Source: Oceanotoga teriensis (GTDB taxonomy: Bacteria > Thermotogota > Thermotogae > Petrotogales > Petrotogaceae). Taken from it: a stretch of DNA of 35,172 bases. The stretch is from positions 1 to 35,172 of the forward strand of contig NZ_QGGI01000023.1 in assembly GCF_003148465.1 (NCBI RefSeq). The letters run 5' to 3'. This document shows positions 24,963-26,828 of the stretch, one piece after another (positions within the stretch are counted from its first letter, which is position 1; each line of letters opens with the position of its first letter). Below the pieces are notes generated by a model, which was not told the DNA's origin, made no database searches, and saw only the letters and a list, made by a program, of their open reading frames with translations. The position numbers were made by a program, and so were the translations under genes.

Positions 24963-26378
24963 TTAAAAATATAGATCTCTTTGATCTGTTGATTTAATTT
25001 TTTCAAGATTTGATAAAAGTTTTTCTTTCATATTTATATCTTTAATACCTTTCAGTTCATTATTTATAACCTTTAAACAAGAATTTTTAGTTTCATCAGA
25101 AGCATAATCAACAACATACTCCATTAAAGTACTTATAGCATTTGGTGTACAAAAACGTTTAACAAAACCCGGAATTGCGAATTCCATAAAATGTTCACCT
25201 GTTCTACCCAATCTATAACATCCAGTACAAAAAGAAGGTAAAAAATTATTATCTGTAAGTTGTTTTATAACTTCATCTAAAGATCTTTGATCACCGAGAA
25301 CAAATTGAGATTTTTTATATGATTCTTTATCTTGTGTTGAATAAGCTCCAACCCCTATATTTGAACCTGCATCTATTTGAGAAACACCAAATTCCATAAG
25401 ATCATTTCTAATACTTATAGGTTCTCTAGCTGTTAATATCAATCCTGTATAAGGCACGGCAAGTCTTAATATAGCAACTAATTTTTTAAATTTTTTGTCA
25501 TCAACTATATATGGAGGTCTTTCAGAAACAGGTGTATTTAAAGCAGGTTCTATTCTCGGAAAAGAAATGGTATGAGGGCCTACATTAAACCTTTCTTCAA
25601 AATGAATGGCATGGGATAAAAGGCCCATCATTTCATATTTCCAATCATACATTCCAAATAAAGCTCCTATTCCAACATCATCTATTCCAGCACCAAAAGC
25701 CCTATCCAAAGAATATAATCTCCATCTATAACTAGATTTTGGACCTCTTGGATGTATCTTTTTAAAAGTTTTTTCATGATATGTTTCTTGAAAAACTTGA
25801 AAAGTTCCTATTCCTGCATCATGAATTATTTTAAACCCTTCAATAGTCTGAGGTGCAGCATTTATATTAACTCTTCTTATATTACCATGACCACTTTTGA
25901 CAGAATAAACTGCTTCAACGGTTTTTGCAATAAATTTAGCATCATACATCGGATGTTCTCCATAAACTAATATAAGTCTTTTATGACCTCTGTCTATTAA
26001 AGCTTTAGTTTCTTGTTTAACTTCATCAATACTTAAAGAATTTCTAAATATTTCTTTATTAGAAACTCTAAATCCACAATACTCACAATCATTTATACAT
26101 TCATTTCCTATATACATAGGTGCAAACAAAACAATTCTGTTACCATAAACTTTTTCTTTTAATTTCTTTGCTCCATCAAATATCATATTTTCAAGTCTTT
26201 CATCTTCACAATTTAAAAGATATGACATTTCTTCAAGATTCAATCTATTTTTATCCAAAGATTTTTGAATGATATCTTCAACTCTTTTTGGATCTGGATT
26301 AATATTTTCTTGAAGTAATGTACTTATTTTCTCATCATCAATAAATGTTTTAGTTTTTGAATCCTTAATATAAAACAT
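24963..26378 (-). CDS. hydG: [FeFe]-hydrogenase maturation radical SAM protein HydG
   Basis: 471 residues. The radical-SAM motif C94-x3-C98-x2-C101 lies in GNECINDCEYCGFR. The C-terminal HydG-specific motif C384-x2-C387-x22-C410 binds the auxiliary cluster with its dangler iron. HydG is a tyrosine lyase that makes CO and cyanide for the H-cluster; its relative ThiH lacks the C-terminal motif, so the call is firm. It is the second gene of the operon, 12 bases after the TM1266-like regulator. Confidence 0.95.
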   Translation of the reverse strand: MFYIKDSKTKTFIDDEKISTLLQENINPDPKRVEDIIQKSLDKNRLNLEEMSYLLNCEDERLENMIFDGAKKLKEKVYGNRIVLFAPMYIGNECINDCEYCGFRVSNKEIFRNSLSIDEVKQETKALIDRGHKRLILVYGEHPMYDAKFIAKTVEAVYSVKSGHGNIRRVNINAAPQTIEGFKIIHDAGIGTFQVFQETYHEKTFKKIHPRGPKSSYRWRLYSLDRAFGAGIDDVGIGALFGMYDWKYEMMGLLSHAIHFEERFNVGPHTISFPRIEPALNTPVSERPPYIVDDKKFKKLVAILRLAVPYTGLILTAREPISIRNDLMEFGVSQIDAGSNIGVGAYSTQDKESYKKSQFVLGDQRSLDEVIKQLTDNNFLPSFCTGCYRLGRTGEHFMEFAIPGFVKRFCTPNAISTLMEYVVDYASDETKNSCLKVINNELKGIKDINMKEKLLSNLEKIKSTDQRDLYF

Positions 26379-26390
26379 TTTAATACCCCC

Positions 26391-26639
26391 TTAGTATTTT
26401 AAAATATGTGATTTTACTTTAACCCCTGATACTTGCCCCAATTTACCATTTAAAGCACCTATTAAATCTGTATTAGATTTAAAGATTATAAATATAATGG
26501 CGATATTTTCTTTTTTCATCGGATACCCGACTCTTAAAAGAATATTATCGCCAAAATCATGAAGTATTTTATTTACTTTTTCAAAAGATTCTTCTCTGTT
26601 TGTAATCGCAATTGAAATCATAGCTATTTTTTCTTCCAT
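26391..26639 (-). CDS. TM1266-type iron-only hydrogenase system regulator
   Basis: 82 residues, MEEKIAMISIAITNREES followed by a beta-alpha-beta-type small domain and ending VSGVKVKSHILKY. This matches the ACT/NikR-C-like family named after Thermotoga TM1266, found beside hydrogenase maturation genes. Its biochemical action has not been shown. Its gggaggg ribosome binding site is inside the 3' arm of the leader hairpin described at 26640-26757, so expression is probably controlled by that leader. It is first in the hyd operon. Confidence 0.88.
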   Translation of the reverse strand: MEEKIAMISIAITNREESFEKVNKILHDFGDNILLRVGYPMKKENIAIIFIIFKSNTDLIGALNGKLGQVSGVKVKSHILKY

Positions 26640-26757
26640 AAAAAAAGCCCTCCCTTTGATATTTTTTTCTCAAAGGAAGGAGGATACAATATATGGCAAG
26701 TAAACCTGATAAGTTTTATTTTTGATCAGTATTGTCATAAAATTCCCTCTTCCTTTG
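26640..26757 (-). promoter_or_regulatory. Two-state leader RNA of the hydrogenase maturation operon (candidate riboswitch/attenuator)
   Basis: Three minus-strand segments compete. Segment 1 is CAAAGGAAGAGGG (26757-26745), segment 2 CCTCCTTCCTTTG (26683-26671), segment 3 CAAAGGGAGGGC (26658-26647). Segments 1 and 2 pair over 12 positions with one bulge. Inside that helix are ACAATA/TATTGT (26735-26730 with 26691-26686) and CTGAT/ATCAG (26729-26725 with 26710-26706), a nested three-helix arrangement. Alternatively segments 2 and 3 pair over 10 positions (one G-U), followed by seven U up to the ATG. That is an intrinsic terminator that also covers the first ribosome binding site. No known riboswitch consensus was recognised. 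Confidence 0.6.
26670..26738 (-). CDS. Possible 22-codon leader ORF upstream of the hyd operon
   Basis: ATG at 26738 follows ggaagaggg by six bases and opens a frame of 22 codons (MTILIKNKTYQVYLPYIVSSFL) with a TGA at 26672-26670, inside segment 2 of the competing leader helices. Its binding site is in segment 1. If translated, ribosomes would break the 1:2 helix and affect termination. It may equally be a chance ORF in a structured RNA; three tyrosines are its only notable bias. Confidence 0.28.
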   Translation of the reverse strand: MTILIKNKTYQVYLPYIVSSFL

Positions 26758-26819
26758 ATGTCAGAATTATGTCCTTCACCTCAGGAAAAATATTAACTTG
26801 TTCTATTTTTAACAATGTT

Positions 26820-26828
26820 ATTATAACA
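26820..26828 (-). promoter_or_regulatory. Promoter (extended -10) for the hyd leader
   Basis: TGT-TATAAT (26828-26820) on the minus strand. No good -35 is found at 16-18 bases. The predicted start near 26813 gives a leader of about 175 bases. Between this site and the tmRNA terminator I see only AT-rich sequence. Confidence 0.45.

What the first reader, a model, noticed from the sequence alone, without database searches (positions are those of the whole stretch)
26640..26813. Undescribed-looking two-state RNA switch controls the [FeFe]-hydrogenase maturation operon
Seen: in the minus-strand leader, CCTCCTTCCTTTG (26683-26671) can pair with CAAAGGAAGAGGG upstream or with CAAAGGGAGGGC downstream. 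The downstream pairing makes a terminator-like hairpin with seven U that also buries the gggagggc ribosome binding site of the TM1266-like gene. The upstream pairing closes a nested structure with two further helices (ACAATA/TATTGT, CTGAT/ATCAG) and a 14-15 base internal bulge, like a riboswitch aptamer with P1-P2-P3. Inference: ligand or protein binding to the upstream fold would prevent termination (an on-switch). Candidates are iron or Fe-S status, SAM, tyrosine or the TM1266-like protein itself. I recognise no known riboswitch consensus.
Basis: partly seen in the sequence, partly recalled or inferred. Interest (0 to 1): 0.78.

Follow-up and report, generated by a model that had tools for sequence, protein, structure and literature searches.

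The report
RNA hairpin switch for hydrogenase maturation
A small, almost perfectly two-fold symmetric RNA hairpin sits in front of the genes that build the metal centre of hydrogen-making enzymes in at least four bacterial phyla, is in no RNA catalogue we could search, and probably switches those genes off when a partner, most likely the small protein encoded right after it, binds.

Summary
The three segments lie where stated: segment 2 (26683-26671) pairs with segment 1 (26757-26745) or segment 3 (26658-26647). In 39 diverse examples 93% of pairs hold and the spacer shows 5-6 pair types. It occurs in 64/103 Thermotogota and in Ignavibacteria, Neomarinimicrobiota and Bacillota, before TM1266, hydG, hydE or hydF, sometimes hydA or an ABC or ECF transporter gene. 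No Rfam family matches and no paper found describes it. In 44 of 58 leaders, forming the hairpin gives the terminator and blocking it gives the antiterminator; elsewhere the hairpin holds the ribosome site. Predicted: stabilised hairpin = OFF. All 87 positive genomes first tested encode TM1266; in the wider Bacillota scan 64 of 70 do, the other six hits looking like chance. I favour TM1266 protein as binder (PyrR-like attenuation); a small-molecule riboswitch is the main rival. Sequence evidence only.

The parts
26820..26825 (-). TATAAT, likely -10 box of the hyd operon promoter (transcript would start near 26812, upstream of the sensor hairpin)
   Evidence: Sequence; a TATAAT at a similar distance precedes the hairpin in many relatives. 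The consensus scan did not list it because no good -35 is present. Not tested experimentally.
26750..26787 (-). Conserved sensor hairpin H (anti-antiterminator): P1 5 bp, tandem G.A/A.A, P2 4 bp, tandem A.A/A.G, P3 3 bp, variable loop
   Evidence: CM match 26745-26794, 62 bits, E 1e-12. Covariation. Stability -13.9 kcal/mol.
26773..26784 (-). 5' strand of H, CTGAGGTGAAGG read from the C of the CUGA-N4-RAGG consensus
26753..26764 (-). 3' strand of H, CTGACATCAAAG (same consensus as the 5' strand: near two-fold symmetric duplex)
26745..26757 (-). Segment 1: 3' strand of H and 5' arm of the antiterminator
26671..26683 (-). Segment 2: 3' arm of the antiterminator and 5' arm of the terminator
26647..26658 (-). 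Segment 3: 3' arm of the terminator; includes the Shine-Dalgarno-like GGGAGGGC (26654-26647)
26640..26646 (-). Seven-U tract of the terminator
26391..26639 (-). TM1266-family protein (82 aa), putative regulator and proposed binder of H
   Evidence: TIGR03959 92.7 bits, cut-off 60.8; PF21699; 51% identical to PDB 2nzc
24963..26378 (-). hydG, H-cluster maturase
   Evidence: TIGR03955 496 bits
23891..25006 (-). hydE, H-cluster maturase
   Evidence: TIGR03956 285 bits
22699..23886 (-). hydF, H-cluster maturation GTPase
   Evidence: TIGR03918 506 bits

Best explanation
A cis-acting RNA family of the [FeFe]-hydrogenase H-cluster maturation regulon. The nascent leader can form a conserved, quasi-palindromic hairpin H (CUGA-N4-RAGG ... 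CUGA-N4'-RAGG: 4-bp spacer helix between two tandem purine.purine loops). H and the antiterminator share segment 1; the antiterminator and the terminator share segment 2. Without effector the antiterminator forms first and the operon is transcribed. When H is stabilised, segment 1 is withheld, the terminator (which also buries the TM1266 ribosome site) forms, and expression stops. In other loci H itself contains the Shine-Dalgarno sequence and would act on translation. The most likely stabiliser is the oligomeric TM1266-family protein, often the first gene of the operon: a feedback loop like PyrR/pyr attenuation, probably with a bound signal (iron, Fe-S or an H-cluster intermediate) deciding whether it binds. 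Shown by comparative sequence: H, its covariation, its gene context, the mutually exclusive folds, co-occurrence with TM1266. Inferred: the OFF sign, TM1266 as binder, the signal.
For: Covariation: 93.4% of cells paired, 93 cells changed on both sides, score 0.575 v 0.222 shuffled. Context: Thermotogota 64/103 genomes; Ignavibacteria 5/197, Neomarinimicrobiota 15/199, Bacillota; in Bacillota 44 of 47 hits with E<=8e-4 lie beside TM1266/hydE/hydF/hydG. Switch: 44 of 58 leaders give terminator with H forced and antiterminator with H blocked; in the window the nascent RNA prefers the antiterminator (-28.3 v -22.2) until segment 3 exists, then H+terminator wins (-36.9 v -29.4). SD-in-hairpin versions: L029, L092, L094, L095, L133, L139, L223. 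TM1266 link: 64/64 Thermotogota and 23/23 Ignavibacteria/Neomarinimicrobiota/first Bacillota positives carry it; Bacillota hits in 64 of 205 TM1266+ v 6 of 193 TM1266- genomes, Fisher 7e-15, the six lying in coding or unrelated sequence. Eight HydG+ TM1266- genomes lack H. H also precedes hydG/hydF where TM1266 is encoded elsewhere. RNA symmetry: 7.1 of 8 half-site letters equal on both strands.
Against: No binding or expression data. Genomes are related, so the counts are not independent; the five Petrotoga-like losses may be one deletion of adjacent parts. TM1266 is itself a regulon member, so co-occurrence is also expected if it is only a client. Many Bacillota TM1266+ genomes have no detected H, though the search used strict filters and diverged versions exist. 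G042 has HydG and TM1266 without H. TM1266 has no known RNA-binding relatives; its fold is NikR-C/ACT-like. In 14 of 58 leaders, the window among them, the terminator also wins or the test is uninformative when H is blocked at equilibrium.
Confidence: 0.6

Rival explanations
1. H is the aptamer of a new small-molecule or metal riboswitch (two tandem purine.purine sites, perhaps two ligands) that senses iron, an Fe-S or H-cluster precursor, SAM, tyrosine or a compound imported by the co-regulated transporters; TM1266 is just one of the regulated genes.
For: Wide distribution over at least four phyla, strong conservation of loop nucleotides, both termination and SD architectures, tandem copies (G774, G820, G600) and control of transporter genes (L107, L210, L212, L235, L238) are all usual for riboswitches.
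Against: The conserved part is a short rod-like, nearly two-fold symmetric hairpin without junction, pseudoknot or bulge pocket. It was always found with TM1266 in the genome, even where TM1266 lies elsewhere, and was absent from the eight HydG+ TM1266- genomes examined.
Confidence: 0.3
2. H is bound by another protein of the H-cluster pathway or a general Fe-S/redox regulator, not by TM1266.
For: HydE/F/G are present wherever H is found, so any of them could moonlight as regulator, as aconitase/IRP1 does (general knowledge).
Against: HydG+ genomes without TM1266 lack H, so HydG alone does not predict H; TM1266 does better.
Confidence: 0.1
3. One reading: the seg1:seg2 fold with two inner helices is a three-helix aptamer and an ON switch.
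For: All its helices can be drawn in the window sequence, and the seg1:seg2 pairing is conserved as antiterminator.
Against: Inner helices and loop length are not conserved even in the nearest relatives; the conserved nucleotides lie in H, upstream.
Confidence: 0.03

Closest known systems
PyrR-binding attenuator of the Bacillus pyr operon (Rfam RF00515)
   Same: Protein-stabilised anti-antiterminator hairpin, antiterminator and terminator share strands; the regulator can be the first gene of the operon; several attenuators in one regulon (PMC7430163).
   Different: Different hairpin sequence and structure (sub-threshold RF00515 hits of 20-23 bits against 54), two-fold symmetric, unrelated putative regulator (TM1266, NikR-C-like), H-cluster genes.
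RAT hairpins of the LicT/SacY/BglG antiterminators (RF03530 bglG-cis-reg)
   Same: Short stem with two purine-rich internal loops bound by a protein dimer (general knowledge) and mutually exclusive with a terminator.
   Different: There the bound hairpin is the antiterminator (ON); here it is the anti-antiterminator (OFF predicted). Only 16 bits against 80 for RF03530.
Metal/cofactor riboswitches near hydrogenases (e.g. Moco RNA upstream of a hydrogenase cluster in Eubacterium limosum, PMC5651825)
   Same: Cofactor-related control RNA upstream of hydrogenase genes.
   Different: No sequence or structure match; here the maturases are the targets.
TM1266 / TIGR03959 / PF21699, PDB 2nzc
   Same: The window protein is a clear member.
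   Different: No molecular function has been reported in the papers searched; this work proposes one.

Membership tests
Any Rfam 15 family | Score above the family's gathering threshold in the leader | tested here: not met
   Window at gathering and at E<=10, L011 and L012 lax, 40 related loci at gathering: no hit over H or the terminator. The same searches did find real TPP, c-di-AMP, RNase P and tmRNA elements.
PyrR-binding attenuator | PyrR-site sequence and structure | tested here: not met
   Best 23 bits against gathering 54
PyrR-binding attenuator | Anti-antiterminator / antiterminator / terminator competition | tested here: met
   44 of 58 leaders; window energies; hence 'works like', not 'is'
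RAT / BglG-type antiterminator | RAT sequence and structure | tested here: not met
   16.3 bits against gathering 80
Riboswitch (ligand-binding RNA) | Direct small-molecule binding without protein | not testable with these tools
   Needs in-line probing or SHAPE
Intrinsic-terminator attenuator | G+C-rich hairpin followed by U run before the first gene, with an alternative fold | tested here: met
   Note: the simple consensus scan did not list the window's terminator because its loop is longer than the scan allows.
TM1266 family (TIGR03959) | Score above 60.8 bits | tested here: met
   92.7 bits; model aligns to 2nzc with TM 0.93
RNA-binding protein (TM1266 as binder of H) | Specific binding of H | not testable with these tools
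   Only indirect: co-occurrence, invariant R36 and near-invariant R15, K66, K76, two-fold symmetric RNA

The most novel reading that the evidence does not exclude
TM1266-family proteins, orphan since their 2006 structure, are RNA-binding sensors: a NikR-C/ACT-like oligomer without DNA-binding domain recognises a two-fold symmetric tandem G.A hairpin and, depending on an H-cluster-related signal, terminates transcription or blocks translation of the whole H-cluster maturation regulon, including newly linked ABC and ECF importers, in at least four phyla.
Probability: 0.5. Interest if true: 0.88.

Novelty: new variant of a known kind. Interest (0 to 1): 0.8.

Why it matters
How cells control assembly of the H-cluster, the most active biological H2 catalyst, is hardly known. 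This gives a compact RNA regulon signature that (1) shows coordinated control of hydE, hydF, hydG and sometimes hydA at RNA level across phyla, (2) gives a testable role to a protein family with a structure but no function, (3) names candidate transporters (SsuA/NrtA-like ABC system and an ECF S component) linked to H-cluster metabolism, and (4) offers a part whose removal could deregulate maturase expression in H2-producing bacteria. It also makes the question 'what does the cell sense when it decides to build H-clusters' directly testable with a roughly 40-nt RNA and an 80-aa protein.

Tried and rejected
Rfam membership: none. Ordinary unregulated terminator: rejected, because H covaries, appears without terminator in SD-type loci and precedes separate hyd loci. 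DNA-binding palindrome: conserved U.G pairs, one-sided G-U changes and hairpin folding favour RNA. Pattern hits outside the regulon were judged chance: L065 (Bradyrhizobium, in CDS), L067/L126, L110, L213, L219, L224, L226, L233, L234, L237, L243, L244. First cross-phylum models were too narrow: R2 required a GRYN spacer and found only 3 of 398 Bacillota genomes; reading leaders by eye showed the spacer sequence is free, and R3 found 70. Three searches failed because a genome handle was needed and two because one reference contained a stop codon. Literature searches and two genome-wide ncRNA surveys gave no description; supplements of those surveys could not be searched.

Full report
WHERE IT IS. 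The window is contig C23 of a 2.79 Mb draft genome, with relatives in the Marinitoga/Petrotoga group (a 62% TM1266 homologue, L005, and its leader match the Marinitoga lauensis record L064). On the minus strand: tmRNA (27297-26944), its terminator (26938-26913), a TATAAT box (26825-26820), the leader, a TM1266-family gene (26639-26391), hydG, hydE and hydF.

Segments 1, 2 and 3, the seven-U tract and the buried ribosome site are all where stated. Segment 1 pairs with segment 2 at -15.9 and segment 2 with segment 3 at -15.1 kcal/mol. Shuffling the region downstream of segment 1 does not reproduce that pairing (z = -6.3; in relatives 49 of 56 leaders beat all 60 shuffles, mean z -5.9).

Comparing leaders of TM1266 homologues shows one strongly conserved element, upstream of and overlapping segment 1: a 38-nt hairpin (26787-26750 here). 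Twenty leaders align without gaps outside the apical loop; 98.8% of the cells of a 12-bp structure are paired and 6 pairs change on both sides.

HOW WIDESPREAD. A covariance model finds the hairpin in 64 of 103 Thermotogota genomes, one or two per genome. Downstream: usually TM1266-hydG-hydE; hydG directly (L088, L090, L096, L097, L100, L101, L105, L108); hydE (L093); a separate hydF (L079, L098, L102, L103, L106, L109, L111, L112); hydA-TM1266-hydG (L082 and L087 read directly, L083 by its near-identical leader and gene spacing); and an ABC importer (L107). An exact pattern scan and then the models found it in Ignavibacteria (5 of 197), Neomarinimicrobiota (15 of 199) and Bacillota, mostly before TM1266 or maturase genes. 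Reading Bacillota leaders showed that the spacer is free in sequence: CUGA-UAAA-GAGG pairs with CUGA-UUUA-AAGG, CUGA-CUUA-GAGG with CUGA-UAAG-GAGG. With these included (alignment A4, 39 sequences) 93.4% of cells are paired, the spacer pairs show up to 5-6 standard pair types, and the covariation score is 0.575 against 0.222 for shuffles and at most 0.19 for slid structures. The general model R3 gives hits in 70 of 398 Bacillota genomes; of the 47 hits with E <= 8e-4, 44 lie beside TM1266, hydE, hydF or hydG, two before an ECF S-component gene and one inside a coding sequence. The phylum and class labels rest on record titles and the tool's grouping.

ANATOMY OF THE HAIRPIN. Both strands read C-U-G-A-N4-R-A-G-G. 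In A4 the first C and the final G are invariant on both strands, and 7.1 of 8 half-site letters are identical between strands on average. The half-site is C-G, U.G (35/39 and 38/39), G.A, A.R; two half-sites face each other across four base pairs. One Thermotogota copy is CCUGAGAUCAAGG-GAUUU-CCUGAGAUCGAGG (L088). Such symmetry suggests a two-fold symmetric partner or two equal sites (inference).

HOW IT LIKELY WORKS. Folding of leaders to the end of the U tract: in 44 of 58 with a recognisable terminator, forcing the hairpin leaves the terminator formed, whereas blocking its 5' strand makes the 3' strand pair with the terminator's 5' arm and the terminator vanishes. In the window, before segment 3 is transcribed the antiterminator fold is better (-28.3 against -22.2 kcal/mol); once segment 3 exists, hairpin plus terminator is better (-36.9 against -29.4). 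So the default of a fast polymerase would be read-through, and anything that stabilises the hairpin early would cause termination. In other loci the hairpin's 3' strand is the Shine-Dalgarno sequence (e.g. L029 GAGGAGG-UUAAAAUA-AUG; L133, L223), predicting translational repression. Both point to OFF when bound. The order of events, the promoter and the sign are inferred, not shown.

WHO BINDS. TM1266 (TIGR03959) is present in 64/64 hairpin-positive Thermotogota genomes and 23/23 others tested. In Bacillota hits fall in 64 of 205 TM1266-positive and 6 of 193 TM1266-negative genomes (Fisher p = 7e-15), and those six hits lie in coding or unrelated sequence. HydG-positive, TM1266-negative genomes have no hairpin: five Petrotoga-like genomes with hydG still behind ssrA and three Bacillota. 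Hairpins stand before hydG or hydF in genomes where TM1266 lies elsewhere. TM1266 of the window is predicted with pLDDT 96 as beta-alpha-beta-beta-alpha-beta, nearly identical to 2nzc (four chains) and similar to the NikR C-terminal domain, but 82 residues long with no DNA-binding domain. Invariant R36 and near-invariant R15, K66, K76 are candidates for RNA contacts. A protein-free riboswitch is not excluded, and the co-occurrence can be partly explained because TM1266 is itself a target. I give about 0.6 to TM1266 and 0.3 to a small molecule.

EXTRA REGULON MEMBERS. An SsuA/NrtA-like ABC importer is under the hairpin in Thermotogota (L107) and Bacillota (L238; in L221 after a TM1266-like gene); L107 and L221 binding proteins align end to end, 29% identity, E 3e-43. 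A second SsuA-type ABC system follows the hairpin in L235. An ECF S-component-like protein follows the hairpin in L210 and L212 and sits directly upstream of TM1266 in G042 (L118). Their substrates could be H-cluster precursors or signals (speculation).

COMPARISON WITH KNOWN. No Rfam family reaches threshold, nor do lax searches show anything credible. Two genome-wide ncRNA surveys do not mention hydrogenase genes in their main text. Mechanistically the closest is PyrR attenuation (PMC7430163): protein-stabilised anti-antiterminator, regulator gene often first. It is not that family by sequence or regulator. In Thermotoga neapolitana RNA-seq under CO2 the regulator, HydG, HydE and HydF are listed with values 5.98, 6.39, 7.52 and 1.28 (PMC7039931), compatible with strong regulation of this operon but not evidence for the mechanism.

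LIMITS.

Noticed in passing
window 27297-26944 (-); L004, L006, L113-L117: ssrA (tmRNA) lies directly upstream of the hyd operon, an order kept in several relatives, including Petrotoga-like genomes that lost TM1266 and the hairpin.
   Followed up: partly
L107 (G064), L221 (G790), L238 (G742): A homologous SsuA/NrtA-like ABC importer is under the same RNA in two phyla; a candidate importer for something needed in H-cluster synthesis.
   Followed up: partly
L210, L212, L118: ECF transporter S-component-like protein under the hairpin in two Bacillota genomes and adjacent to a TM1266 gene in G042, which has no hairpin.
   Followed up: partly
G774 (L143), G820 (L211), G600: Tandem copies of the hairpin in front of hydG or TM1266, as known for tandem riboswitches.
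   Followed up: no
L155, L159, L164, L170, L175 leaders (Bacillota): Leaders of TM1266 with apparently degenerate or two-part versions of the CUGA/RAGG pattern that R3 scores poorly or not at all; may be a diverged subclass.
   Followed up: no
L096, L097, L100: The hairpin covers the Shine-Dalgarno of a short ORF or start codon followed by a terminator-like hairpin before hydG; possible translation-coupled version.
   Followed up: no
L036 / L064 (Marinitoga lauensis): hydG appears split into two ORFs, perhaps a sequencing error or frameshift.
   Followed up: no
second TIGR03959 matches below cut-off: Most Thermotogota genomes also encode a weaker TM1266-like paralogue (about 30 bits); its role is unknown.
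   Followed up: no
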